A stretch of DNA of 64,000 nucleotides, from contig MU832072.1 of the NCBI GenBank assembly GCA_029204225.1, forward strand, positions 24,575-88,574. The letters run 5' to 3'. Under the pieces are notes generated by a model. The model worked only from the letters and a program-made list of their open reading frames with translations, did not search any database and was not told where the DNA came from. Below are positions 3,234 through 58,871 of this stretch, piece after piece (position 1 is the first letter of the stretch; each line of letters starts with the position of its first letter). Position numbers and translations under genes: made by a program. This DNA is from Diphasiastrum complanatum (Eukaryota > Streptophyta > Lycopodiopsida > Lycopodiales > Lycopodiaceae).

Positions 3234-4209
3234 TGTTGGAGTTAAATCTTTCTCCTACTCATCCTTTTCGCCCTCCTTATCACTTCAAGATAAATTTCTC
3301 TCTCAAGAATTCTACAAAAATACACTATCTTTTACACAGTCTGCAGAAATACGTGTAGAGTCCAAACATGCAAGATGCTGCAAGGAACCACAAGGAACCT
3401 TGCCTACGGTCACTTATGAAAGAGCCCGAAGTGAATTGTAAAGTCTTGCTTATGGTCATGTGTGAAGACTCACCACCAAGAACTGCCAGAGTTTAGCTTA
3501 TGGTTACTTACGAAGTGAACTGAAGTGAACTGTAAACTCCTGCATTGCGAAGTCGAAGTAAACTGACTGCAACAAGTTCACAAGGACTCACATATGAAGA
3601 CCAATGGAAGGAGTCATCCGCAATGAACCACAACACTTCAACCTACGGTCCATTGTGATAGCAAATTGAAAGAAGCCAAAGGCACCGCCAGACACTGTAA
3701 GTTATCACTTATGGTTGCCTATGAAGTGAATGAATGATAGCTGACCGAAGGAAACCGCCAAGTCAACGATTGCGGTTGACACACAGTTTCATCTTCACGA
3801 CCCTGCGGTCAAACTACAATTGCAACGTCACCACATTTTCATGCTCCTGACGTGTATGAAGGAGATTCTTTTGTTGTACCTCTTCACATCTTCACGATGC
3901 ACCAATAACTGATCTATGGATCATATACAAGGGCTACTAATGATCTTTTAAGTTGTAATTAGAATAACTAAAGGTCTTCTGATAGCTATATAAATATCTT
4001 AACATTTGAAGAGAAGCAGATGATCGATCAATGTATTCACAGAGATCAAATGACCAAAAGTGGGCTTCAAGTAGCTGACTCCTTAGAGTTAGTGATCATT
4101 TTAGAATGAGTAAAGAGTATTTTGAAAGATAGCATTCATTAGTTATTGTAAGTAGGATCACGCGCTTTGCGCGATTGTTTTGTGATCTGATATCGTTGTT
4201 CCTACAACA
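3234..4209 (+). mobile_element. Copia-type LTR, about 976 bp
   Basis: The segment begins TGTTGGAG and ends CCTACAACA, the TG...CA ends with short inverted repeats usual for Ty1/copia LTRs. A purine-rich tract lies directly upstream, which fits a 3' LTR on the plus strand. There is no associated coding region: the neighbouring upstream copy (2626-3233) joins almost immediately. The segment shares the tttacacagtctgcag block with the Copia-1 LTR at 14600, so the two families are probably related. I could not find a convincing target duplication. Confidence 0.6.
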
Positions 4210-5160
4210 CTCTTTTATACAGAAGTGCTATTTTTCATATCAGTTGTATTCATGTTTAATGTTTGAATGCCTCTCAATCTTTCTCACCATTATCAAAACT
4301 TATTTGTCAGAAACAGAGAATAGTATGGTTATCTCAGACATCTAAATCGTTCGTATTCTCTATGGTTGTCTACAATGTAAAAATTACAACAAATAAGGAT
4401 CCTAAAACACTTGAAATGATGAGGAAAATAATAGATTATGATTTCATAAGATTAGCACAAGTTGAACCATCAAAATCCATCAAAAATCTATGCTTGAACC
4501 TCACTAAATGGCCCAAATCCTTGAAGAAGGCTTCACACGTGTGAAAGTACGGCCTCCCACAGTCTGAGTATTGTACACCAGACCTACATTCAATCATATA
4601 ATCATTAGTAATCACAAGTACTCAAACAATTATGAACATAGAGAGCAATTGCACCATTATGAGAGAAAAAACATGAAATTGCTTGATTGATGTTGGTGAG
4701 ATATCATCACCTATATATACATGATCCATCACGGTTTTGGGCAGGTATGAGTAGCCCTAAACCTATCCCTAATGCTAATTTTGGTGGATCTTTCATCCCT
4801 ACCAAGTTAGGATTGGAATCTTGGAAATCCTCAACAATGCAAAAACTACCAAAAATAGCTGCTATTTTTTCTCCCTTGTATCTAAGCATAATTTGGACTC
4901 TTTCCAAAGGTTCTAACACTTAGGTCTACTTGAGAACATCCTTATGAATGGAATCCTATGCTATTTGGCACGTGTGACAAGCCACATCATGACCATCTAA
5001 CTATTTACAAGTCATAAGACCAAAACTAGTCAAGCTAGAATTGTGAATTTTTAACATACAACACCTACTTTGACATCTAAATCAAATTAGAACTACTCTA
5101 ATTCTTAATCTCTAAGTAATCCAAGATCCTTATTCATTAGTTTTCAAATGTTTCATCTAG
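4210..5160. other. No supported gene; possible LTR-like sequence
   Basis: No coding region is recognisable. A minus-strand TATA-like tgtatatatagg lies at about 4717-4728, and a palindromic cacacgtgtg occurs near 4533, both features seen in the copia LTRs elsewhere in this window. The stretch may therefore be an old LTR, but no ends can be placed. Confidence 0.3.
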
Positions 5161-6505: not shown

Positions 6506-7207
6506 TGTGAAAGTACTGTACTTTAGGACCATATATGGATCTACAAAAGATCCACAAGAGTGATTGAATGTTTGCTTAACAATCTATCAAAAAACTAGAC
6601 ACAAAAAAGTTGATCTAGATTGGCAATTTGACAAACAACAAGCATTAACAATCAAAAGCATTGATAAACATTGAAATCCGAGCCCACACGTGTGTACTAC
6701 AGGCTGTAGTATGGCCTTCAACCTGAGAAACAAGTAGAAATTGATTTGGTTTCATTTGGATCACAAAAACTCAATGTACATAGTGAACTAGCTTGAGATT
6801 GCTAATGAGCTCCAAAAATTTTCTTTTTTCTCACTATGGAGAGAGGGAATACATAGCAAATTCGACTTCCTTCTTGAAGTTAGGTGGATTTCCAGCATGT
6901 AATAAGGAAGTTAACTCACTCTCCTTGACCTAAAATGAAACCCTTGTCTATTTCCTAGAGTCATGCTTGGTAGATAGCTAGTTGGTCAAATTTTCACCTT
7001 AAATCTAGGATTTAGGTCCTATAAAGTAGGGATGACCACCAAATAGACATGAACAACTCTTTTGACTTGACCTAACCTACATTAGGATGGGTTTCCCATG
7101 TGGCATAATGGCCTCACATGTGTGAGACCCACTTGTGTACACAATTTACACTATTCTACATGGTTTTTGATCAAGCTAGATTTGCCAATTTTTGGCAATT
7201 CTTCACA
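6506..7207 (-). mobile_element. 3' LTR of gag-protease element, copy A
   Basis: Read on the minus strand it starts TGTGAAGAATTGCC at 7207 and ends AGTACTTTCACA at 6506, so it has TG...CA ends with a 6-bp inverted repeat. A purine-rich gaggaggag lies immediately upstream (7208-7216) in the polypurine-tract position. It is closely similar to the LTR at 55880-56528, which lacks about 50 bp present here near 6640-6690. It carries a palindromic cacacgtgtg near 6690. Confidence 0.8.
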
Positions 7208-7417: not shown

Positions 7418-9574
7418 CTAAACATCATGCCAAGCCATGGATTCCAAGGCATTTTGTGCACTTGAAGATACATCAATTAAAATATTAAGTGCATAAATAA
7501 TGTTGCCAAAGACAACTTGCCTTGCTTGATCCATATGATTGAGCCTTGATGGCTCTATCTTGATACTCAAGATTCTTCTTGGAGTCCTCGGGTCTTGAGC
7601 TTGATCCTCCACTTGACTTGACTCCAAAACATCAATGAATTGAATAATGTGTTGATCCAAAGGTGCTTCTTCAAGTTTACAAATCTTCCACTCTTGAAAG
7701 ATCACATTTCCACCATTGACAAATTCTTTGGTTGAAAACAAGTAGATTCTACAATCTCTACTTGAAGAGCAAAACACTACCATTATTCCTATCATTGAAA
7801 TAGGATAATCTTTGGTCCTTACATTGGAATGATCATGCACAAAGCATGTGGACACAAAGATTTCCAAAGCAAATGATGTTTCATCTTTTATGACTCTATT
7901 CAAACTATTACAAAAATAGTTATCCAATGAAATTGCTTTATCAACAACAAATGTAGATTTCAAAGCATCCCATTTCATTGTCTTGTCATACAAAGTAATA
8001 AACACCATGGATCTTAAAGGTAAGAAACAAGTCACCTCATGTCTACTAATACTTTCCAAAAAGTATTCAAAGATAGTAGACTCTCCAATGCTCACCACCC
8101 TTGCAAGATGCACACTTGAATGGACAATTTGCATGCAATTTGATGACTCGGCCATTGTCATTGAGGACTCCCTTGGAACTATCATGCTTTGAAGCTGATC
8201 CTCAAGATCTTCCTCCTTTTGATGCTCCTCCTCAATGCAAGCAAGATCACACTTTGCCAAGATCTCCTCTTGAGTGATCTCCTCCTTCGCCAAGCTCATT
8301 CTTTCAAAAGCAACACTAGCTTCCAACTTAAACAATCTTCCATGTTTAAATCCCTTTGCAATGCAAACATCATTTTCCAAGATGAAGCAAACACCATGCT
8401 TAAACTGGACATCCAAACCACTCTCTAAGAGTAGACCAACACTAAGCATATTCTTGGTGATTGATGGTACATAAAGGACATTTTCTAGATCCATGCATTT
8501 TGAGGATTCTAGATACAAAGAGATGGTTCCAACACCATCTATCCTACACTCTTCATCATTTGCAGTAAAGACAAACTTTTTAGCATCATTAAATGAGTGT
8601 AAGGTTGAGAAAAAGTCCTTTTCACAAGACATGTGGGAGCTAGCCCCACTGTCGATCCACCAATTGTCTCTTGAATTGCTATTGCTTGTTGGTGAGGATG
8701 TAGATGCCATCAAGAATACATCTACTTCATCCTCCTCCTCCTCCTTTGCAAGGTTTCCTTGTTTGTCCTCCTCCACTTGTGCTCTTAGCCTCTTGTAGCA
8801 TTCAGATGCATAATGCCCCTTCTTTCCACAAAAGAAGCATTTTTGCTTTGACTTGTCCTTTGAGCTTGATGCATCATCCTCTTCTTTGGCCTCCTTTGGA
8901 TGCTTCTTCTTTCCATTGGTCTTCTTTTTGCCCTTGAATGAGAAATTGGCTTTCTCATCACCATCCTGCAAATACAAAGAACTCATCCTAGATTTTGCAT
9001 GGAGCATCCTACACTCTTCAGCCACTAATACACTGTGAAGTTTTTCTATAGTTGGCAAAGTGTCTTGGATGGCAAAACTTTGGACCAAATTTGCAAAGTC
9101 ATCTCCTAGACCATTAAGGACAATTTGTACAAGCTCTCCATCATGAATCTTCTCTCCAATGGAAGCCAACTCCCTATTTAGAGACTTGATTCTGAGTACA
9201 TAATCCTGTGCACTCTCCTCACTTCTCCTCATGCTTTGCAAAATTTGATTTCTAAGCATAAGAACTCTAGAAGTGTTGCTAGACTCATAGATTGATTTTA
9301 AAGACTCCCAAGCCTCTTTAGCATTAGTACAAGCTGATACTTCTCTCAACAAATCATTGCTCACATTCATCTTCACACAATGAAAAGCAAGCCTAGATAT
9401 CTTCTTGTATCTAGCTAACTCCTGTGCACCTAGAGGTTCATCTTCATCTTCAATCAAGAACTCATAAAGGTCTTGGAGCACCAATAGTGACTCCATTCTA
9501 ACCTTCCAAATAGCATAATTTGTAGAATTCAACCTCTCACTAGCTTCTAGAAGGTATGCTCCAGCAGATCTCAT
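7418..9574 (-). CDS. Gag-protease polyprotein of a non-autonomous copia element
   Basis: A single uninterrupted minus-strand frame of 718 codons from the ATG at 9574. I prefer this to the TTG 24 bases upstream because copy B has its ATG at the homologous place. Order of parts: DUF4219/UBN2 Gag domain (about 1-195), a lysine-rich linker, a CCHC zinc knuckle (246-259, CFFCGKKGHYASEC), an acidic linker, and a retropepsin-like protease with WWIDSGASSHM (about 305-315). In an autonomous copia element the pre-integrase zinc motif, integrase, reverse transcriptase and RNase H would follow. Here about 300 residues follow that match none of these, apart from a short VNGGNVIFQE resembling the end of an integrase. 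The same tail is present in copy B, so it belongs to the element family. Probably mobilised in trans, if at all. Confidence 0.85.
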   Translation of the reverse strand: MRSAGAYLLEASERLNSTNYAIWKVRMESLLVLQDLYEFLIEDEDEPLGAQELARYKKISRLAFHCVKMNVSNDLLREVSACTNAKEAWESLKSIYESSNTSRVLMLRNQILQSMRRSEESAQDYVLRIKSLNRELASIGEKIHDGELVQIVLNGLGDDFANLVQSFAIQDTLPTIEKLHSVLVAEECRMLHAKSRMSSLYLQDGDEKANFSFKGKKKTNGKKKHPKEAKEEDDASSSKDKSKQKCFFCGKKGHYASECYKRLRAQVEEDKQGNLAKEEEEDEVDVFLMASTSSPTSNSNSRDNWWIDSGASSHMSCEKDFFSTLHSFNDAKKFVFTANDEECRIDGVGTISLYLESSKCMDLENVLYVPSITKNMLSVGLLLESGLDVQFKHGVCFILENDVCIAKGFKHGRLFKLEASVAFERMSLAKEEITQEEILAKCDLACIEEEHQKEEDLEDQLQSMIVPRESSMTMAESSNCMQIVHSSVHLARVVSIGESTIFEYFLESISRHEVTCFLPLRSMVFITLYDKTMKWDALKSTFVVDKAISLDNYFCNSLNRVIKDETSFALEIFVSTCFVHDHSNVRTKDYPISMIGIMVVFCSSSRDCRIYLFSTKEFVNGGNVIFQEWKICKLEEAPLDQHIIQFIDVLESSQVEDQAQDPRTPRRILSIKIEPSRLNHMDQARQVVFGNIIYALNILIDVSSSAQNALESMAWHDV

Positions 9575-9606
9575 CTTACTAGTGACTTCTACAAACAAGA
9601 AATAGA

Positions 9607-9960
9607 TTTGATTGACTTGAAACTCACAAAGGTCTCACACTTGCAGTGTTTCACTCAAATTTGATTTCTATTCCAAAAAATGGACTTATAATCACAGTTC
9701 TATCACTCCCTCACAAAGCTGGAATGAAGATAAGATGAAGTGAAAACTACTTTCAAACAAATCTTGCCAAGAAATGGATTTGATTGTCTCTAGAAACTCA
9801 CTAAGGTCTCTCTCTTGTAGTTTTTCACTCAAATTAGATTTCTAATCCAACAAATGGACTTATAATCTCAGTTCTAGCACTCCCTCACAAAGTTGGAATG
9901 AAGTTAAGATGATGTGAAATCTACTTACAATCAAATCTTGCCAAATTTGGCTATTTTTGG
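9607..9960 (-). repeat. Tandem duplication of about 178 bp in the element leader
   Basis: The stretch holds two adjacent diverged copies of the same block: actcacaaaggtctca / actcactaaggtctct, then tttcactcaaatt, then aaatggacttataatc, then ctccctcacaaag. The copies start near 9607 and 9785. They lie between the gag start and the primer binding site, so this is an untranslated leader. Copy B is truncated inside the first copy. Confidence 0.7.
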
Positions 9961-33800: not shown

Positions 33801-36800
33801 TTATTCCATCCACTGAAACCTGCAGCCTCGACGTTCCAATCCATTAATCGCATTCCACGACAAAAAAGGCCTCAAATACGATGATAGCTTCACTTTCTTC
33901 AAGCTCCCGCAGTGCAAGAGTGTAGCTGCAATATTGCACTCATTCAATATTACGATTTGCACATGGACAAGCTTCAACTTCTCGATGTAATTCATCTTCC
34001 CGATACTCTTTAATCCCGCATTAGTCACCGCACAATAGGATAGATTTATCTGCAAGGGCACCCACTTATTCACGTCAACAAAAGTGAAATGCTGATAGAT
34101 AGATAGCAAACCAAATAGCCATCAGCAAAAGCAAAATTATAAGGCAGATCAAGTATAGATAGATAGACAGCAGCACAAGTTTAAGCAGCTGATTAGACAC
34201 CCCCCATTTCAACAGGTAAAACTGGCGACAATTCGCATTTTTTGCATGGAATGTAGCTGCTTATAATTTGAAGCCTTGAACCTTGCGGAGGTTTACGCAA
34301 AATTGACTGATGGCTAGAACGCCATCGTCGTCAATACCAGTACAACGCTTTATTTCCAACTTGACGAGACGCGTACATCCGGCGGCAACATATGAAATCC
34401 CGGCTGATGAAATAAGTGCACATCCTCGTAATTCCAGTTGTTCCAATTCTCCCAATAGCGAGATAGACTGCATAGCTCTATCAGTGATATTCATACAATA
34501 AGAAAGATTCAGAACTCTCAGCTCCTTGCAGCCTTTACATAGTGCAGCAACTCCAAAATCACCAATTCCCCAAGATCTGGTATCAAAAAGGACATATAAA
34601 TTTCCTGAACTAGCTGCAGTTATGCAATGGTTGGTCGAGGCACTTCAATGATTTTTCAAACCAAATTTTCTGTGCTTTATAGAAAGGCGTCAAAAAGGAA
34701 AAGCAAATTCACAACTGTTAACTATTAACATGTGACATCAGTTTGAAGTGCACCTATAAAGATCAACTTCTCGTAGACTGTAACAGTTTGCACCAAGTTG
34801 TGCAAGGCCTCTATCGGAAATATTTTGGCATAAGCCAATTCTTAGACTTGTGAGCTTTGTGCAGTGCAACAATGACATCAAGCCTGCACAAATTTATGAT
34901 AAACATTATAATTAACGATCAATTTGTAAAAGGTACGGCAAGGGTTCTCAAATCTCAATGCATGTGAAATTTTGAGATAACTGTGAAATTAGAACCTTTG
35001 TCATTGATATCACATTCGGTAAGGTCTATTTCCTGTAAATGTGGACACCCCTGGCCGAGAAAGGCCAGACCAGTCTCACTTATCAGGTTACAAGCCTCCA
35101 TCTTCAGACTGACAAGGCCTTTACAACAGGCTCCGATTGAAAACAGCGTATGGTCAGAGAGTTGTCGGCAGCACGTGAGATCAATCGCCTGGAGTGATCT
35201 CGCGCAACCTCTCGTAATGGCAGCAATTCCGAGGTCGTCAACCCCCTTGCATTTGCTCAAGCTTAAGCCTTTCAGCTTATTACAACCGTTTCCTAAAAAG
35301 CATAACCCATTTCTCGAAACTTCGCATCCGTCTAACTTGATAAACTGAAGGTAGTCGAACATGTGGAATGTTGCAAGTACCTTTGCTGTCATCTTTCACA
35401 ACAAGGCGAAAACGTAAGCAAAACGTCGGTGAAGCGAGAGATATTTTACTGATAAGATAACAGCATGCTAGCAAAGCTCAGTAGGTAGAGATATATTCAG
35501 TCCAGAGCTTCGAACTTTTTACATTCCACTAAATAAAGCAAGCAGAGACGAGGGTAACAGTTCACGAGAAACTCTCTATGTGGTTGCGTTATTGTTCTCG
35601 TTTTAAAGTTATTTGTGCTCCCGGTGAACAGTATGAAATTTAAACTGATTACAGAAAGTGTCAGTACTGTAAAACACTAATTAAATAAGCTATTTGTAAC
35701 AAGTTTAGTATGGGTTTATGCTAATTACATAAAGTCTTAGTACCTGCAAACATTAACAAAGCTATTTGCACAGAGATTTATTCTCGGTGAGAAATATGAA
35801 ATTTGACCTAATTATAGAAAGTAGTCGTACCGCCATATTTTGAGCTATCTATTTGTAGAAAGTTTATACCGGTGAACAATATGATAGCATGAGCTGCTGA
35901 AGCGATGATCCAGTGGAAAGATTCGACAATCCAACATCACTCACATTTGGGCACCTGGACAAATCAAGTTTCTAAAGAAACGAGAACATAATCCAACCAT
36001 AGCTTTAGTCAATATGCGATCGCTTGTAGTAAGGACTAAACTCAATGCAACGCGTATCTTCTGCTAGACAATGAGTGGTCTTACCAACAACATCTTGCAG
36101 CCAGCACGCAGATAGTCCAGGCCTCTATCACTTATGTTGTTGCAAGAAACGAGATGAAGATTTTCGAGATAGCTCAGAGATGCGACAGCTGCTAGACCTT
36201 CGTCAGTGACCTGGAGGACCGGCAAAATGATTGCGTCAGTCGGGGGGGGAGAGAGAGAGTGAGAGAGCGACAGAGAACAATGGGGGGCAGAGAGAGAGAG
36301 AGAGAGAGAGAGAGACCACGGTGTAAGAGACGTCTAGAGTGTGAAGCTGCTTGCAATTGGCAGCCAGACTGACTATGGCAATATCTGAGATACCCAGGCA
36401 CCCTCTTAAGTTCAGAAGAGAGAGTTTCTTGCAACGAGCACCCAAGTAGACTAAAGCCGTATCTGATATCTCATAGCATCCTATCAGCTTCAAACACTGA
36501 AGGTTACTGAGCTGCGAAAGAGCTACAACCCCGAAATCTCTCACACTGGAGCAGTAACTAAGGTCTACGTCCCATAAACGGACGCATTTTCGAGCTATGA
36601 TATCAAGGGCGGCGTCGCTGAAGCCTCTAGTCCTGGTTAGGTTGATAGATAGCAGACGAGCACCCAGGTATTCGGCAGTAAATGCTATACATTGGTCGTT
36701 AATCTGGACACAGGAAGATAGATCCAGATACATAATATTAGGATATCGCTCCAGAATTTTGGTAAGCAATGTAGCATTTGAGAGTCTTATACCGGTCCTG

Positions 36801-36910
36801 CTAATTGCTTCTAGTCGATAGAAGTGTCGACACACTAGGCGCCAGGCCTGCTTATCATACTTGTCCTTCACATGTTGAAAAATGTTGAGTAGGACGTCGT
36901 GATCATCCAT
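33801..36910 (-). CDS. FBL3: F-box/LRR-repeat protein, FBL3-like (seven exons)
   Basis: Probably the substrate-recognition subunit of an SCF ubiquitin ligase. Exons, in coding order: 36910-36320, 36210-36085, 35971-35870, 35392-34996, 34883-34754, 34576-34282, 34049-33801. They sum to 1890 bp (629 residues plus stop); all introns are GT...AG and the reading phase is kept throughout. The start is the ATG at 36910. The F-box occupies about residues 1-38 (DVLLNIFQHV, WRLVCRHFYRLE), followed by cysteine-containing leucine-rich repeats to the end (LDLSSC, LKLIGCYEISD, LSLSKCKGVDDLG, IDLTCCRQLSD and others). It ends RRGCRFQWME. Length and repeat pattern match plant F-box/LRR-repeat protein 3 (the At5g01720 family, about 665 residues); orthology is inferred. 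No break is visible. Intron 1 (109 bp) contains a microsatellite. Confidence 0.93.
36289..36315 (-). repeat. (CT)n microsatellite in intron 1 of the FBL3-like gene
   Basis: About thirteen CT units on the coding strand start four bases after the splice donor and fill a quarter of the 109-bp intron. Length changes could affect splicing. Confidence 0.9.
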
Positions 36911-38022
36911 TTGCTGCAAATTCTATCTACAATTTGTTCACCATACAAGATCTGCAGCTCCTTTGATAGCGAAGCAGTGAATCATTTGAAAGAAGGAGGC
37001 CAGACTCAAATTCATGAAGCACAGAAGATGAGGGAATCAATAAAATAGAAAGAGATGCCGCAGAGGTAAGATAAGAAGAGCAATTCACATTGTCGCATCT
37101 GTGATTGATGATGCACTCCCTGCCAATACTGCTCTATCGATGTGTTTCTTTCGAAATATGGTGTATACGTTTTGCGAAATTTGACTGCAGGACTGCTTAT
37201 GGACAGATTTTGGGTTTTGTTCAATATCCAAGCACCTCTTTTCCGTAGCGATGACGGTTGGAAAGAGAGATGTTAGTGAATGTACTGTATTATGACCTGT
37301 ACATGCAAGAAGCATCATCAAACCTTGTATAAACCGTTGAAGCCAGCAAGAAATTCAATCTATGAAACCTTTTCTATAATATGCCCCTCTTTAAAAACAG
37401 TCCTAAAGTAGGTCTTTCTTATAATTGTTAGTATTATTATATTTATTTTTTGTTTTGTTGCTGTGTTGTAATGATATCCTAAAAGATTAGGTGTCTTTGA
37501 GCATGAAAATCATTCTTTTGATTCTCTAATACTAAATGTTTGTTTTTAGTTTCTCCTCACAATAGTGGTGAAGCTATAATTGTGAAGATTTGCTGAAAGA
37601 CAAGGTGTTAATATTGGTAAAGCTATTGTGATGATTTGCTAAAAGACAAGGTGTCAATCTCATGTGGCGACTTAGATTATTTTTGAGAGCACATTGGCAA
37701 GACTCGAGTTTCTATTCTATGTACTTGTTGCTTTTTGGATCCAAGCAAGATCAAAGTCATTTGTACTTTGTTTTCAGTCTACAAGCCATACTATGTACTG
37801 TTCCACACGTGAGTGGGTTGTACTTTATGTTCGATTAATGATTAAAGGTTGCTCTTGATTGCTAGATGCTAATTTGTTGATCTAGATCTCAAAATCTAGT
37901 GTCGAGTTTGCATTGTTTTTATGATCAATCAATCAATCACTCTTCTCACGGCATGCACCCATTCAAGGTCCAAGTACTATACTTTCATAGAAGAGATTAT
38001 CAATATTTCATGAACTTCCACA
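36911..38022. other. Upstream region of the FBL3-like gene; no other gene
   Basis: 36911 to about 37330 is probably the 5' untranslated region and promoter, but I see no convincing TATA box. Two adjacent 45-49 bp copies of a block with gatttgctgaaagacaaggtgt lie at about 37569-37662. The rest is AT-rich and unassigned. Confidence 0.45.
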
Positions 38023-40310: not shown

Positions 40311-41282
40311 TATTTAGTACTTTGGATTGCCGATATACCATATGGATTTCAGATGAAGGAATCATTAAATGATGATTCTCCTTTCAAACTCACTGAAATC
40401 CATAGTTTCATGCAATGGTTTCTTGAAATCACAACATCTTCTATTTGGAGAGTTGTTATTTTTCATTCCTCTTGGCAATCAGCTTCAATACATAAAGCTT
40501 TATTAACTTTCTGTAATGCAAGAATTGAAAATACTGTGTGGTAATTCTTTAAGTTCGTGAATTATTAATTCGTATTTTAATTCAAAGTTTTATTCTAAAT
40601 TTAGTATAAGCAACAATGTTAACTTAAACAGTTTAAATTTTTTTAGTTATTTTAACTGTAATGTTTCTTTTCAGGTACAAGCCCAATGTCAGAAACTCGG
40701 GAGGAGTGCGACTTTGCAATGAAATAGAATATATAACCATTGGTTATTATTCTTTGGATGGCAAGCGCTCGATGCTTCATTACAACACCTCCGGACTGAC
40801 AAGTTTTGACAACTTGTTCCAATATCCAGCCGTGACAAAAAAAATTTAAAAATCCAATGACGAGTTCCGTGGCCACAACAATTAATTAATCATTTAATGG
40901 ATATTTTTTCTCACCTAGCTGATTGGGTTTTGGACTTATTTAGCAGTAGCGGCACTATGAGCGCACGTGCTGTTCAGAAAGGCAGGCATGTTGCTGCAAT
41001 AGATTTAGATTCCAATCTAGTTGATTTTGTAAAAATGAGAATGAAATCTGATTCGGTTTTTCCAGGTGAACTGGCTGAAAGAGTTCAGACAACGAGGACT
41101 CAGTAATTTCCTTGTCCAAATAACCCCAACCTCCTGCTAGCGGGAAAGTGGGTGATACAGGGGAGTTTGCTGATGTCCTAGTTGAGGACTATAATGTGGT
41201 TACAGTTGTCGACGAAATTGTGGAAGAGGTGCCAGTTGGAAATAATTTTATTTGCAATAATTTAATGTTTAGATATATGTAA
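40311..41282 (+). pseudogene. Beta-class N4/N6 DNA methyltransferase pseudogene
   Basis: Motif order is that of beta-class amino-methyltransferases (N6_N4_Mtase). Motif IV reads ADIPYGF (40329-40349; usual DPPY). After a splice at 40540/40675 (GT...AG, 134-bp intron, phase kept) comes WYKPNVRNSGGV. NEIEYITIGYYS and FQYPAVTKKI follow, then a motif X-like PWPQQLINHLMDIFS, and motif I VLDLFSSSGT (40924-40956; usual FSGSGT), with GRHVAAIDLD after it. An acidic tail (EDYNVVTVVDEIVEEVP) runs to TAA at 41282. Frameshifts near 40848, 40870 and 41075 and an in-frame TAA near 41120 break it, and two catalytic motifs are altered. It would methylate an exocyclic amine of cytosine or adenine in DNA if intact. 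Possible exon start at a TTTAG acceptor at 40317. A mobile-element origin or a dead host gene are both possible. Confidence 0.8.
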
Positions 41283-42068
41283 AGATTTAAAAACTAATTA
41301 AAATTTTTGTCATAATTTAAAAAAATATTTTTCTTGATGCAAGAATTGTAGTTTAAAAAACTTTTAAAATTTAAAAAAAAATTAAAACTTTTGTTTAAAA
41401 TAAGCAAAAAGTTTTATTTTAGTTATTCTAGTGGTTGTGTGTCTAATGATTTTATTTTGAATAGTATTATTATTTCATATAAGCTAATTTGCAGTTATTA
41501 ATAAAAATCTATAAGCAAAATTTTAGTAGGTTGATTAATTTTCTTGCAAAATACAACATTTTTTTAGCATTACAATATCTTTATTTGAAGCATTTTAAAT
41601 ATGGGTATGTTTTGAAAAAAAAAAAACTAGGTCTCCATGTCATTTCTCTTTTTTTTGTCATCGTGTTTTGTCGGAAAAGTGTCCATAGTTTGCATTTCAA
41701 CCTTGGGGATCCAACTCTATTTCGACCTTGTAATTTTGTTTCAATTCAACCTTGTAATCTAGATTTGATTTGATTTGACCAAAGATATAATTTATTTTGA
41801 CCTAGTATTTTGACCGAGTATTTTTTATCTGACCTTGGAGTCTAATTTATTTTGATCTTGGATTTGACTCTGATCCATTTCAAGTTTGAAGGACTAATTT
41901 TATTTCAAAATTTTTATCAAAGTTTTGTAGACTAGTCTATTTATAAATATGTACAAGTATTTGCAACAAGTCCACATTACTTTTGATGTTATCAGATATA
42001 AAAATCCAACAAGTAGTTATACTAAAATTAAAATTATATCACTCTCGATTTTGTTAGATGAGTTAGGA

Positions 42069-46382: not shown

Positions 46383-49300
46383 TTGATAAAGACCGGCAAC
46401 AATAAGCACTTGGTTTTATGCAAGCAAACAAGGATCTACTCTTTTCCAAGTGACAATCAAAGATGCCAATGCAAGCGGAGCAATATCATCCAATATGGGT
46501 TGCAGTGGGTCCTGCAACACATTAGGGGTGGGATGATGTTGGCTGATTCTGACGAATTCCTAAGATACTCGGCCAGAGCTAACCAAGAGCACCTCTCACT
46601 TTAGACGGAGGAGGTCTCTAAGAAGATGAGAGGAACAAAGACTGAGAGTTGAGTATGAGAGCCAAGGAATACTAGTTAGTATTGTCAAGTAGAAACTGTG
46701 TAAGCCTCATGGTGAATCCCGAAAGATGGAATGACCATGTAGGAACTAGTATTTCTAGGCAAAGTAATAAATGCAAGTAGACCTCTTTTAAAGAAAGCAG
46801 AGTGAGCCACCTTTTGATGGTGACCTCTAGTGGAGAGCATAATTCCACTTGTAATTTGTGAAATGTGGAAATGCCACTAGGATGTCACCTAAGGAGCTCT
46901 CTTGTTTATTTAAGAAACTCCCTCAATATCAAAAAGACCCTTTAAGGAATGCCATGATAGAAAAATATCAAAATAAAAAAAATAATATTGTTTATTTGCT
47001 TGCCCCCACCACTCCCGAGGCCTCTCCAACTCCCAATGATCTAACCACAGTGTCTATAGTCACAGTTAAGAACTGTAAACAGTTCGCAGTATAACTTGAC
47101 TAAATTCAAAAATATTCCCTCCATTGGTTACGAAAAGGTCAATATTTTTACTGGATCTAGAATATGACTGTCATCCCCAAATTCGAATCAGGAAAAATAG
47201 CAAAATGTTTACATATGCATTCCTTCCACGAGAATGGAAATATGGGTGCCATCTCCAATTATGAACGCGATCATCACATTGGAATGCAAATATGAGTGCC
47301 AACTACCTATTGGAATGAAAAAATGAGCGGCATTTCCAAATTTGAATCAAGCATACAAGCATGGGAGATTGGATTAATCGTACAGAGATATAATCAAAGA
47401 TGAGTATTTTGTTTTGCTTCATAGAATCTGGTCATAGTACTTTGATGCAATTGATTACTCTATTGTTTTTTTTATGATGACATTGTATCATCTACATGTG
47501 GATATCCCTATTGATTTGGCACCTTTGCAGAGAAGAGGAGGCAAAGGAATTCAAATATCTGTTGAGGATCGTTCTCGTTACAGGGCAGAAGGGAAAAAAA
47601 CTTGGAATTGTGGATAGATGGAACATTATATCCACAAGATCCAAGCACTTTGACACATCTCACATTCTTCTCAATAACTCATTTAGTTACATGGATATGC
47701 AATGGGCATAGTGGATTACTAGGATATTGTGAAAGATTGCAAAACCATGGAAAACAACTTTATATGAATAAAGTTCACTTTTTAGAAGGTGAGTTAATTC
47801 AAATATCCTCTTATTGTCAGAATAGAGATTGTCATCTCCAAAAGACGTTAGAAGAAAATGAACAACTTAAAAAAAATAATGAATCATTATAGAAGATAAC
47901 AATCAATATCAAATCAGAACTAGAGCAAATGCAATCAATCCTACAATCTATTCATATTGAAAACTTGCAATTATTGAAGGATGTAGGATTGTCAAAGAAG
48001 AAGGCTGAAAGTAAGAAGCGAAAGTGACAAAGTTGCAAGGATATTCAAACGCTTTCAAAAGGAGGTTATCGAAATAGAAGGATCCGTGCATTCAAGTAAG
48101 CATATTCTGATTCTTGTAGGTTTTTCAATGACATTTGGATTTAATTTTAGCTATGGTGATATTCTGTTAACTATCTGTTTTTTTTGCAGATCTGCATTAG
48201 TAGCTCCTCGGAATATTAAAGACAATGCTTCACTAGGAATGTCATTGGGCACAATATTGACAGGCATCCACCGAGCGTATCATGATGAACAATAGGAGTT
48301 CAAATGTAAAGTGTAAAATAATAGAGTCTTGGATGGTGGACATTCAAAAAATTTTAGATAAGACTATAGTTCAGGGTGCTTGTGATTTTGCAGATATTAG
48401 TAGAGAAGCATATGCAACAATATTTAAACTAATTAGAGAAGCTTTTAAGCAAGTTCAAATTAGAAAAGTCCCAATCCCTAGAACATATCACTTGAAGAAA
48501 GAGAGAGATACATAAAACATAGGTATGCATAAGATCATTGGAACTCCATTTCATATTGAGGAGGTGTATGAAACTGATGGAAGATTGATATTCTATATTT
48601 CATCTAACTACTTATTTGTTGATCTAAATTACTTGCTAAGATACATCGTCACATTCTATGAGATAACCTATGAAAATGTGAATGGCAAAATAATCATAGT
48701 ACTTAAGTTAGATGAGTCAGAAATTGTGAAAGGGCAGAAGATGGAGAGGGTTAGTATAACTCTCATGAATGGTGCTCTATCACAAACAGAGGACCAAGAA
48801 GATTTCAGAGTCAGTGTCCAGTCAAAAAACGATATATGGTGGTTGGCAGCGTTCAGGTAACTAGCCTCATTATTTCATTACATTCATTGAATAGTATTAA
48901 TTCATTGTTAACTAAGTTTGATTAATTCTTTGGACATGTGCTGAAGGAGGATCATGATATATTATCATGGATATTCTCAAGGACATCTTATCTTAGGATC
49001 ATCAAGGACCATATGGATGGAGGACTTCTCAATGTTCCAGGAGTTGGAGACTTCAATTTGAATGGCACTTAGCAGGTGATTTGAAAACATTGAAATGTAT
49101 GTATAATGTCTCTCACGGTGCTACATTAAAACACCCAAAATGGCAAAAGATGTTATTAGGAGTACATGAATTACTAGAGAATATGCAGATCCAAACTGGA
49201 AGCCTGTACTGTCTATCCCCTTGAAAATTGTGCATGTTTGCACTCTTCATGCAGAAGTTAGATTAATAGAAAAGATCATTTATCTTCATATAGTTTTTTG

Positions 49301-52899: not shown

Positions 52900-54185
52900 T
52901 CTTCAACTAGTTTTAGCATAGACTTTGATAACACTCCAAATGAAGTCCTATGCTTCATGAACAAGTCCTTTCCCAATGCTTTGGTGAATTTATCAACTAC
53001 ACATTCCCTTGAAGACACATGTTGAAGCTCCACCTCCTTTGCAATAACTTGCTCCCTCACAAAATGTTGCAATATCATTTCAATGAGACACGAAGAATCA
53101 CATAGAATGTAAATGAAATGATTCCTCCATGCTATCAACTCTGAACTCTCTAGAAAAATACAGCAACCAAATAATAAATGTGAGTGATCAACTTTTGCTT
53201 GCATGTTTCTCTAGTTGAAGCCCTTTGAGATCAACCTCTTGATCATCAACTTGGCCATCAAAGTCATTGCTTTGTTTTCGAGATCCATTACTTGATTTTA
53301 CTGCAAGATAACATCCATCCACTTGAATAGCTCCATGTACACAAGAAGATCCTCCAAAAGATGTTCTACTCTTCATAAGAGCTTGATACTCAAATCCATT
53401 GCTTGGATCCACTCCTCTTCTTTCCTTGCTTGATCTACACTTGTAGGCTCATCAAAAGAGATAGTAAAGCAACATAATTTCCAAAAACTATTTGCTTACC
53501 CTTTGATCATATGTGAGCCTTGAAGGTACTTGTCTTTCCCTTGTTGTTCTCCTTGGCTTTTGACTTGATGAAGGTCCATCATCATCGCCATCCAAAGTAT
53601 GATCCTTTTCTAAGCATCAAGAATGTTAGATCCATCCACACTACCATCAATCATTCTTGAAGACACTTTTGGAATGTTTCCTCATAAAAAATGACATCTC
53701 TACCAATAATCACTTTGCTAGTAGAAGGAATGTAAACCTTGTAGGCAAAACTCACCTCACTATATCCAACAAAAATACCTCTTCTTGAAGATGGATCCTC
53801 CTTGGTCCTATCATCAAGAGTAATGTTGTCATAGCATGTGCATCCAAAAGCTCTTAGAAAGTTGACACTTGGCCTCCTCTTGAATAAGATCTCAAAAGGT
53901 GTCCTTCCATCCAAAATAGCCCTCGGCCACCTATTGCACAAGAAATTGGCACACACCAAAGCTTGATCCCAAAATGGTTTGTCAAGATTAGCACTTAGCT
54001 TTATCACTTTCACATAAAGTCCTATTCTTGCTTTCAGCCACTCCATTTTGTTGTGGGGTCCTTGATGTTGTATACTCCCTCTTGTTCCCATGCTCATCAC
54101 AAAAGGCCTTGAACTTGGTAGATATGTACTCACCACCATTGTCACTCTGGACAAGATCACACTTCAGAATTTCAATTGGCCGGTC
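52900..54185 (-). pseudogene. Copia integrase and RNase H remnant (alpha family)
   Basis: From 54185 downwards the minus strand reads SDNGGEYISTKFKAFCDEHG, TPQQNGVAES and KPFWDQALVCANFLCNR, then FGCTCYD and RDVIFYEE (53690), the C-terminal half of copia integrase. It contains a frameshift near 54010. RNase H then survives only as its tail: LQHVSSRECVVDKFTKALGK (53045). The whole reverse transcriptase, which should lie between about 53640 and 53210, is missing. The upstream border is the junction with the gag-like element, which reads on the opposite strand. Confidence 0.85.
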
Positions 54186-57013: not shown

Positions 57014-58871
57014 CTATTGAAAGATCACATTTCCACCATTGACAACTTCTTTGATGGAAAACAAGTAGATTCTACAATCTTTACTTGAAGAGCAAAACAC
57101 TACCATTATTCCTATCATTGAAATAGGATAATCTTTGGTCCTTACATTGGAATAATCATGCTCAAAGCATGTGGACCCAAAGATTTCCAATACAAATGAT
57201 GTTTCATCTTTTATGACACTATTCAAACTATTACAAAAATAGTTACAAATGGAGATTTGAAAGCATCTAATTTCATTGTCTTGTCATAAAGAGTACTAAA
57301 CACCATAGATCTTAAAGATAAGCAACAAGTCACTTCATGTCTACTAATACTATCCAACAAGTACTCAAAGATAGTAGACTCTCCAATGCTCACCATCCTT
57401 GCAAGATGCACACTTGAATGGAAAATTTGCATGCAATTTGATGAATCGACTATTGTCATTGAGGACTCTCTTGGAACTCTCATGCTTTGAGGCTGATTCT
57501 CAGGATCTTCCTCCTTTCGATACTCCTCCTCAATGCAAGCAAGATCACACTTTGCCAAGATCTCCTCTTGAGTGATGTCCTCCTTTGCCAAGCTCATTCT
57601 TTCAAAAGCAACACGAGCTTCCAACTTAAACAATCTTCCATGTTTAATTCCCTTTGCAATGCAAACATATTCTTCAAGATGAAACAAACACCATGCTTAA
57701 AGTGGACATCCAAACCACTTTCTAAGAGTAGACCAACACTAGGCATATTCTTGGTGATTGATGGTACATAAAGGACATTTTCTAGATCCATGCATTTTGA
57801 GGATTCTAGACACAAAGAGATGGTGCCAACACCATCTATCCTACACTCTTCATCATTTGCAGTAAAGACAAGCTTTTTAGCATTATTGAATGAGTGTAAG
57901 ATTGAGAAAAAGTCCTTTTCACAAGACATGTGGGAGCTAGCCCTACTATCGATCCACCAATTGTTTCTTGAATTGCTATTGCTTGTTGGTGAGGATGTAG
58001 ATGTCATCAAGAATACATCCACTTCATCCTCATCCTCCTCATTTGCATGGTTTTCTTTTTTGTCCTCCTTCACTTGTGCTCTTAGCCTCTTGTAGCATTC
58101 AGATACATAATGCCCCTTATTTCCACACAAGAAGCATTTCTGCTTTGACTTGTCCTTTCAGCTTGATGCATCATCCTCTTCTTTGGCCTCCTTTGGATGC
58201 TTCTTCTTTCCATTGGTCTTATTTTTGCCCTTGAATGAGAAATTGGCTTTCTCATCACCATCCTGCAAAGACCAAGAACTCATTCTAGATTTTGCATGGA
58301 GCATCCTACACTCTTCAGCCACTAATACATTGTGAAGTTTTGCTATAGTTGGCAAAGTGTCTTGGATGGCAAAACTTTGGACCAAATTTGCAAAGTCATC
58401 TCCTAGACCATTAAGGACAATTTGTACAAGCTCTCCATCATGAATCTTCTCTCCAATGGAAGCCAACTCCCTATTTAGAAACTTGATTCTAAGCACATAA
58501 TCCTGTGCACTCTCCTCACTTCTTCTCATGCTTTGCAAAATCTGATATCTAAGCATGAGGACTCTAGAAGTGTTGATAGATTCATAGATTGATTCTAAAG
58601 AATCTCAAGCCTCTTTAGCACGAGTACATGTTGATACTTCTCTCAACAAATCATTGCTCACATTCATCTTCACACAATGAAGTGCAAGCCTAGATCTCTT
58701 CTTGTATCTAGCTAATTCCTGTGCACCTAGAGATTCATCTTCATCTTCAATCAAGAACTCATAAAGGTCTTGGAGCACCAAAAGTGACTCCATCCTAACC
58801 TTCCAAATAGCATAATTTGTAGAATTCAATCTCTCACTAGATTTTAGAAGGTATGCTCCAGCTGATCCCAT
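57014..58871 (-). pseudogene. Gag-protease polyprotein, copy B (broken)
   Basis: It follows copy A along its length, from MGSAGAYLLKSSERLNSTNY at 58871 to the NGGNVIFQ region at 57014 and beyond. Breaks are a TGA in place of the Trp of AWESLKSIYE (about 58605), a TGA in place of Ser before the zinc knuckle (58157), a frameshift near 57680 and further shifts near 57225 and 57014. The knuckle has changed to CGNKGHYVSEC (58130). The protease motif reads WWIDSRASSHMS, so the catalytic DSG is DSR. The extra C-terminal region unique to this family is present (KEDITQEEILAKCDLACIEE and following), and no integrase or reverse transcriptase occurs here either. The element is cut at 58980 in its leader. 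Confidence 0.85.

What the first reader, a model, noticed from the sequence alone, without database searches (positions are those of the whole stretch)
40311..41282. Decayed beta-class N4/N6 DNA methyltransferase gene with a spliceosomal intron in a plant genome
Motif IV (DIPY), the KPNVRNSGG block, a motif X-like block and motif I (DLFSSSGT) appear in the beta-class order, and a phase-matched GT...AG intron joins the first two. Such enzymes are bacterial in origin. N4-cytosine methyltransferases are known in liverworts, but I know of no described copy lying among transposons in a vascular plant. Altered motifs IV and I and frameshifts show that this copy is dead, so the question is what living relatives exist.
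Basis: partly seen in the sequence, partly recalled or inferred. Interest (0 to 1): 0.8.

Follow-up and report, generated by a model that had tools for sequence, protein, structure and literature searches.

The report
Plant transposon carrying a DNA methylase
The decayed gene is a broken piece of a very common jumping gene in this plant that carries its own bacterial-type DNA-marking enzyme, an arrangement reported before in algae, and it also carries rows of a repeated palindromic DNA site that the enzyme may read.

Summary
Window 40320-41667 is a frameshifted relic whose motif I block hits Pfam N6_N4_Mtase just above cut-off, with a GT-AG intron at the same place in 11 of 11 copies printed. 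It is the right end of a high-copy TIR DNA transposon (full pairs about 6.5-9.4 kb; TIR AACACGATGAC...GTCATCATGTT; 4-bp target duplication), with a DUF7869 transposase-like gene on one strand and a multi-exon methylase gene divergent from it. 242 methylase places were scored in the 1.74 Gb genome. Motif IV 'DIPY' is not decay: 9 of 9 subfamily A and B exons read have it; the C and D copies read lack that stretch. The methylase exon is under purifying selection between four subfamilies. The architecture is known: a Sola-1 transposon with a ParB-methylase gene opposite the transposase in a brown alga (PMC12477816), which cites green and red algal cases. New here: a land plant, and an iterated palindrome CTATGCTNAGCATAG (10-13 exact cores in three elements, about 0 expected; 4012 genome sites) between the two genes and in introns. 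I propose the element's own protein reads it. Unproven.

The parts
40320..41667 (+). Whole relic: right-hand part of the transposon, truncated on the left inside the motif IV exon
   Evidence: blastn against fetched elements, longest pieces 81-82% identity; pairwise alignment 84.7% over 1347 aligned columns; no match to the four E elements between 21374 and 40318
40320..40540 (+). Exon with motif IV (IADIPYGF), left-truncated
   Evidence: tblastn of sister exon, 79% over 73 aa; frame open
40541..40674 (+). Spliceosomal-type intron, GT...AG, splitting a Trp codon
   Evidence: same site in 11 of 11 printed copies
40675..40849 (+). Next exon, first piece (YKPNVRNSGG..., motif X-like), ends at a premature stop after a 1-base insertion
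40861..41106 (+). Same exon, second piece, motif I (DLFSSSGT; DLFSGSGTT in sister copies)
   Evidence: PF01555 27.9 bits; 150 scored genome matches of 1655 candidates
41091..41237 (+). C-terminal tail of the methylase ORF in a third frame
   Evidence: tblastn 84% over 49 aa
41277..41667 (+). 3' non-coding part and right terminus of the element
   Evidence: blastn 81-84% to the right ends of E17a/E17b, E9 and E16
41657..41667 (+). Right terminal inverted repeat, GTCATCGTGTT (GTCATCATGTT in sister copies)
   Evidence: right-end search ends at the terminal base in 39 of 40 listed matches

Best explanation
The feature is the broken right end of a Sola-like cut-and-paste DNA transposon. The fuller form has short terminal inverted repeats, a transposase-like gene with a DUF7869 domain on the left strand, and, head to head with it, a multi-exon gene for a beta-class N4-cytosine or N6-adenine DNA methylase. 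SHOWN: element ends, target duplications, gene pair, high copy number, intron, purifying selection on both genes, and an array of a 15-base palindrome (CTATGCTNAGCATAG) between the genes and in introns. INFERRED: the methylase protein binds the palindrome array of its own element as a dimer and methylates it or DNA near it, marking element copies. The mark would either keep the divergent promoter from silencing by the host's 5-methylcytosine system or time transposase expression, as Dam does for some bacterial transposons (recalled). Copies outlive this function and decay by C-to-T change.
For: Ends: left-end search starts at base 1 in 40 of 40 listed matches, right-end search ends at the last base in 39 of 40. 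TSD: exact 4 bp in 4 of 7 independent insertions (AACT, TTAA, TCAA, GTAG), 3 of 4 bases in 2, 2 of 4 in 1. Layout: 5 of 6 methylase-DUF7869 pairs within 12 kb are divergent at 5.3-6.5 kb (two of the five are one segmental duplicate); 20 of 40 right ends have a scored methylase place 0.7-1.3 kb inside on the same strand; 7 of 40 left ends have DUF7869 1.3-1.8 kb inside on the opposite strand. DUF7869 93 and 166 bits. Selection on the motif I exon between subfamilies: dN/dS 0.08-0.24; pN/pS 0.21-0.40, bootstrap upper limits at most 0.50; transposase pN/pS 0.22-0.27. Array: 13, 10, 10 exact ATGCTNAGCAT cores in three elements against 0.025, 0, 0 in shuffles; information confined to about 16 bases; 4012 genome sites, 0 for the reversed pattern; found in A, B, C and D loci; none in 4 of 4 stretches upstream of a second DUF7869 family, where no methylase match was seen. 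Precedent for the gene pair in Ectocarpus.
Against: Nothing here shows binding, methylation or transcription. The ParB-like domain that would do the binding is not supported: no Pfam or NCBIfam match, no meaningful PHROGs match, no hhalign match, score not above shuffles, poor AlphaFold model. Motif IV has Ile where the phage relatives aligned have Pro, so activity is not assured; the C and D copies read have lost motif IV altogether. The array could be read by the transposase or a host factor. Only 3 of the 15 first listed site clusters on C1 lie within 10 kb of a methylase place I had scored, though only about a seventh of the rough candidates were scored. The single C element read has only 2 exact cores, and L009, another C locus of 3.2 kb, has none.
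Confidence: 0.55

Rival explanations
1. Transposon-borne, but the methylase is passenger cargo: a captured gene copied along with the element and of no use to it.
For: PMC12477816 speaks of accessory genes in giant transposons (passages); many copies here carry stops or have lost the motif IV stretch.
Against: Purifying selection on the motif I exon across four subfamilies, in the range of or somewhat weaker than that on the transposase; cargo would drift towards dN/dS 1, as copies do within subfamilies (0.24-1.02).
Confidence: 0.1
2. The protein is a DNA-binding regulator that has lost catalysis (DIPY instead of DPPY); it binds the palindrome array and represses or coordinates the two divergent promoters without methylating.
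For: Ile for Pro at motif IV in 9 of 9 A and B exons printed against DPPY in the four phage enzymes aligned; palindromic array, often spaced by about four helical turns, between divergent genes.
Against: The SAM-binding motif I FSGSGTT is among the best conserved blocks; NIPY/NLPY-type motif IV is active in rRNA adenine dimethylases (recalled).
Confidence: 0.2
3. The array is a binding site of the transposase or a host factor, and the methylase acts elsewhere or without sequence preference.
For: Internal repeats bound by transposases are common (recalled); the main array lies beside the transposase gene's 5' side.
Against: In E17b all 16 sites (up to one mismatch) lie more than 2 kb from either end, some inside the methylase gene's introns by my exon reading; the second DUF7869 family lacks the site in 4 of 4 upstream stretches.
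Confidence: 0.2
4. A host gene family, or recent bacterial or phage contamination.
For: The domain is bacterial in origin; phage relatives exist.
Against: Shared intron, element ends and target duplications, scored places on all of C1-C23; listed phage matches only 24-32% identical (12 of 183 rows, 12 of 37); no relative in one scan of bacterial and archaeal genomes, which tests close relatives only.
Confidence: 0.02

Closest known systems
Sola1-1_Ec32, Sola-1 transposon of the brown alga Ectocarpus (PMC12477816; passages read)
   Same: High-copy DNA transposon; accessory gene on the strand opposite to the transposase; product with a DNA methylase domain predicted to make N4-methylcytosine or N6-methyladenine
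   Different: 21.5 kb and an 1104-aa product against about 8-9 kb here; ParB-like domain reported there, not confirmed here; the word 'palindrom' does not occur in that paper's main text; sequences could not be compared. Copy number does not set them apart: their table gives 1989 copies, 2 intact, for Sola-1
Green and red algal transposon methylases (Iyer et al. 2011; Petroll et al. 2025; cited in PMC12477816, seen only in its reference list)
   Same: Said there to be similar proteins in transposons
   Different: Not examined
M.PhiCh1-I of Natrialba phage PhiCh1 (ParB_N match 23.7 bits, under its cut-off of 26.3, plus N6_N4_Mtase 122 bits)
   Same: Aligns with 97% of the joined plant methylase at 24% identity; same motif order
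   Different: Motif IV DPPY, motif I DPFAGSGST; N-terminal ParB_N detectable; a phage gene
Bdelloid rotifer N4CMT (PMC8885841; abstract and passages)
   Same: Permuted N6_N4_Mtase with introns in a eukaryote
   Different: A host gene with a chromodomain, reported to mark and silence transposons; not part of one
DNMT-bearing retrotransposons of Symbiodinium and Klebsormidium (PMC5890265; abstract and passages)
   Same: Transposable elements that carry their own DNA methylase
   Different: C5-cytosine enzymes in retrotransposons, not an amino-methylase in a DNA transposon

Membership tests
Sola DNA transposon superfamily | 4-bp target site duplication (PMC10741241, passage) | tested here: met
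   exact in 4 of 7 independent insertions, 3 of 4 bases in 2, 2 of 4 in 1
Sola DNA transposon superfamily | Terminal inverted repeats of 11-1124 bp and size mostly 2-9 kb | tested here: met
   11-bp TIR; seven of eight left-right pairs are 6.3-9.2 kb apart start to start, one is a deletion derivative of about 1.5 kb
Sola DNA transposon superfamily | DDD transposase | tested here: inconclusive
   DUF7869 with conserved LQLDN and HTHxxIDQ blocks suggests an RNase H core by eye; AlphaFold model failed (pLDDT 32)
Sola DNA transposon superfamily | Sequence homology to a known Sola1 transposase | not testable with these tools
   no Repbase or eukaryote protein set held
Sola-1 elements with ParB-methylase gene (Ectocarpus type) | Methylase gene on the strand opposite to the transposase | tested here: met
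   5 of 6 pairs divergent, 4 of them independent; four stretches read
Sola-1 elements with ParB-methylase gene (Ectocarpus type) | ParB-like domain in the methylase protein | tested here: inconclusive
   GGIHSLQA...EEAKLLAWDHN resembles ParB by eye; no profile hit, hhalign probability 0.2%, AlphaFold pLDDT 41
N6_N4_Mtase (PF01555), permuted beta class | Profile match over motif IV to motif I in that order | tested here: met
   window piece 27.9 bits; joined exons of a sister copy 51 bits, positions 3-217 of 221; CcrM is the best NCBIfam match, far under its own cut-off, and the best solved-structure match
N6_N4_Mtase (PF01555), permuted beta class | Catalytic motif IV [DSN]PP[YFW] (recalled) | tested here: not met
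   DIPY in 9 of 9 A and B exons printed, aligned to DPPY of phage enzymes; stretch missing in the C and D copies read
Liverwort N4-cytosine methylases | Orthology | not testable with these tools
   no plant proteomes held

The most novel reading that the evidence does not exclude
A eukaryotic DNA transposon carries a complete self-marking system: a methylase with a DNA-binding part and a dedicated, helically phased array of palindromic parS-like sites in its divergent promoter, so that each element labels itself with a non-host DNA modification (4mC or 6mA) in a land plant and thereby escapes or manipulates host silencing.
Probability: 0.33. Interest if true: 0.85.

Novelty: new variant of a known kind. 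Interest (0 to 1): 0.64.

Why it matters
If right, hundreds of copies, perhaps over a thousand, of a selfish element have spread a bacterial-type amino-methylase through a land plant genome, with its methylase kept by selection. That makes the disputed question of 4mC/6mA in plant nuclear DNA testable at named sites, offers a plausible source from which plants could gain such enzymes, and gives a defined candidate palindrome for an element-encoded epigenetic mark.

Tried and rejected
Contamination and stray host gene: rejected. Passenger cargo: disfavoured by selection. Motif IV change as decay of this copy: rejected for A and B. AlphaFold of the DUF7869 protein (A1, pLDDT 32) and of the ParB-like exon (A4, pLDDT 41) gave unusable models, so no fold search was run. 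ParB identity: hmmscan, hhalign and hmmsearch with a profile of seven phage ParB stretches gave nothing above chance (PDB profile search none). Prokaryote collection: 46 pattern stretches, none a relative. Viral contigs: one weak match, 43 residues at 40%. Near-identical copies on C7/C11 and C12/C18 are no evidence of recent transposition, because the match runs on through the ends of the stretches compared. Site-pair pattern in viral contigs: 0. Literature: ten searches in all, of which I saw listings, and passages of eight papers; DUF7869 gives 0 papers. In those listings I saw no report of this gene pair in a land plant or of the palindrome array, but most journals and all bioRxiv are outside the library. 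The species name (a 23-chromosome lycophyte such as Diphasiastrum complanatum) is a recalled guess from contig sizes and was not tested.

Control weaknesses: element boundaries were set on E17, E9 and E16, so only the other four insertions test the TSD with boundaries fixed beforehand (1 exact, 2 with 3 of 4 bases, 1 with 2 of 4). The two C17 copies are one segmental duplicate (98.9% over 12.4 kb) and the C1:38.72 and C1:34.49 copies show identical flanks; each was counted once for the TSD. In some searches only 150 of 1605, 1655 and 2954 rough candidates were scored. Subfamily labels A-D are mine, from similarity; the transposase copies used for selection (L041-L049) were not each shown to sit beside a methylase. 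dS between subfamilies is close to saturation. Stretches flanking the three elements hold 0, 0 and 1 exact cores but 2, 2 and 1 with up to one mismatch, more than the shuffles suggest. Shuffles keep dinucleotides but not local duplication; the fall of information outside 16 bases is the control for that, and some neighbouring units do share flanking letters. In the D elements sites also lie downstream of the methylase (L018 7680, 7854). The upstream stretches of the second family are 4.2-4.6 kb each and one holds Copia-like open frames by eye, so absence there is limited evidence.

Full report
1. The observation. The motif I ORF, 40861-41106, matches PF01555 at 27.9 bits (cut-off 26.7). Joined exons of a sister copy cover 3-217 of the 221 profile positions with 51 bits, and CcrM is the best NCBIfam relative (38 bits, far under its own cut-off) and best solved-structure relative, so the beta-class order is real. 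The intron is at one place in 11 of 11 copies printed. The copy is dead: a 1-base insertion, deletions of 17 and 7 bases, a left truncation and a changed motif I.

2. It is a repeat. In the plant's own genome (1.74 Gb; C23 is 42.5 Mb and C24 10.9 Mb long, so 23 large contigs if they are numbered by size; LEAFY-domain matches present) the profile and the window protein each give 150 scored matches out of about 1600 rough candidates, 242 distinct places together after merging neighbours, on all of C1-C23. The counts are lower bounds, and some places are duplicates on small contigs.

3. The element. Copies share sequence far upstream of the methylase, including, on the other strand, a gene with DUF7869 (93 bits; 166 bits). 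Two of its conserved blocks, LQLDN and HTHxxIDQ, look by eye like parts of a DDE/D catalytic core. Four paired places (E17a, E17b, E16, E9; three independent) show sharp ends: 5'-AACACGATGAC...GTCATCATGTT-3', flanked by 4-bp duplications AACT, TTAA, TCAA; the left repeat of E16 has lost 6 bases. Genome searches with the ends stop at the same terminal base in 40 of 40 (left) and 39 of 40 (right) listed matches, of 1074 and 902 rough candidates. Five further end pairs were read: GTAG exact; TGGA/TAGA (the same flanks in a second place); ATCA/ATCG; TACG/TAAT for a deletion derivative of about 1.5 kb. Taken as independent insertions: 4 of 7 exact, 2 with three of four bases, 1 with two of four.

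4. Layout statistics. Of six methylase-DUF7869 pairs within 12 kb (242 methylase and 150 DUF7869 places compared), five are divergent with DUF7869 5.3-6.5 kb upstream; two of these are one segmental duplicate. The sixth is same-strand and involves a different DUF7869 group. Twenty of 40 right ends have a scored methylase place 0.68-1.26 kb inside, all 20 on the same strand; seven of 40 left ends have DUF7869 1.28-1.77 kb inside, all seven on the opposite strand; eight left-right pairs agree in strand.

5. Was the methylase useful to the element? I told four subfamilies (A-D) apart by similarity. Between them, dN/dS of the motif I exon is 0.08-0.24 with dS 0.85-2.88 (one pair saturated); uncorrected pN/pS is 0.21-0.40, with 95% bootstrap upper limits at most 0.50, against 0.22-0.27 for the transposase domain. 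Within subfamilies dN/dS is 0.24-1.02, as expected for copies that decay after insertion. dS is close to saturation, so exact values are soft. A limit: motif IV could be read only in A and B, where 9 of 9 exons have DIPYGF. In nine C and D loci no motif IV-like word was found; in L018 and L019 (D) the exon is missing and in L020 (C) it is cut (by eye), so those copies cannot make a complete enzyme. Copies of A decay mainly by C-to-T change (6.2% per site on either strand against at most 1.6% for any other change), most in CG and CHG contexts (34 of 341 and 35 of 367; CHH 76 of 1652), which fits host 5-methylcytosine.

6. A new feature. The most over-represented words free of A/T runs in three elements form one palindrome, CTATGCTNAGCATAG. 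Exact cores ATGCTNAGCAT: 13, 10, 10 per element against means of 0.025, 0 and 0 in 40 shuffles each; 0, 0 and 1 in their flanks (2, 2 and 1 with up to one mismatch); 0 in the 64-kb window. In E17b they fill 3528-4522 between the two genes, with others (up to one mismatch) at 5148, 6262 and 6904-7041 in the methylase gene's non-coding parts by my exon reading, and none in the transposase half. Spacing of 40-42 bases, about four helical turns, is the commonest (8 of 19 gaps up to 100 bases in the genome listing of 50 places). Information falls to 0.5 bits or less outside some 16 bases. The same palindrome is the top one with one central base in D elements (5 in L018, 4 in L019) and is tied for top with 2 in the one C element, L020; B loci L006 and L008 hold 3 and 4; L009, a C locus, holds none in 3.2 kb. 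The genome holds 4012 sites and none of the reversed pattern. Four stretches upstream of a second DUF7869 family, without a methylase match there, hold none, even with one mismatch. The link to methylase places was direct for only 3 of 15 listed clusters; most methylase candidates were not scored.

7. How it may work. Shown: a transposon with two divergent genes under constraint and a conserved palindrome array. Inferred: the methylase protein reads the array and marks its own element. A ParB-like domain, which would make the binding idea natural, looks present by eye but failed every test.

8. Compared with what is known. PMC12477816 (passages) reports a 21.5-kb Sola-1 element of Ectocarpus (1989 copies, 2 intact, in its Table 1) with, opposite the transposase, a gene for a ParB-like plus N4/N6 methylase protein. 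[quoted passage not shown] The self-marking idea itself is thus in print. PMC10741241 (passage) gives Sola: DDD transposase, 4-bp TSD, TIR from 11 bp, mostly 2-9 kb, found in moss, not common in flowering plants. The plant element fits the TSD, TIR and size; the DDD core was inconclusive and homology to Sola1 transposase could not be tested. PMC12704722 (passages) reports ParB-N6_N4_Mtase fusions as frequent in phages; PhiCh1 here looks like one, with a ParB_N match slightly under its cut-off. So this is a land plant form of a known algal kind, with a feature, the palindrome array, that I did not see described in the listings.

The probability of the novel case was lowered from 0.35 to 0.33 and that of passenger cargo raised from 0.08 to 0.1, because the C and D copies read lack motif IV.

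Noticed in passing
L044-L046, L066-L069 (C19, C15, C237, C14): A second DUF7869 family (HTHEDIDQVF type; by my sorting on profile start, 86 of the 150 scored DUF7869 places are outside the methylase-linked group) without the palindrome array and without a methylase match in the 4 upstream stretches read; possibly another Sola-like lineage.
   Followed up: partly
L018, L019 (C24), L020 (C2): Subfamily D and C copies that have lost or cut the motif IV exon; in D the loss is shared by both elements read, so it may be a non-autonomous lineage.
   Followed up: partly
window 7418-9634 (-), 53651-54160 (-), 57594-58154 (-): Copia-type gag-pol pieces; the first is a 738-aa open frame with gag, Pol_BBD and SH3 matches.
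   Followed up: no
window 36236-36919 (-): A 227-aa open frame with an F-box match (2.8e-7) and weak LRR, perhaps part of a host gene.
   Followed up: no
window 46922-48250: 93% match to DNA just right of the E17a element: another repeat family.
   Followed up: no
G000 C554 and C813; C7:40889501 and C11:49378026; C12 and C18: Identical or 99% identical stretches on different contigs: unmerged haplotypes, misjoins or segmental duplications; copy counts may be inflated.
   Followed up: partly
C24:5.14-5.57 Mb and C22:12.24-12.35 Mb: Local clusters of methylase copies, four of them in steps of about 4.5 kb (C22:12333634, 12338167, 12342734, 12347135): perhaps a tandem array.
   Followed up: no
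L027-L028 (C16): The E16 stretch holds extra partial copies of the ParB-like and methylase region on both sides of the element, a nested or rearranged insertion.
   Followed up: no
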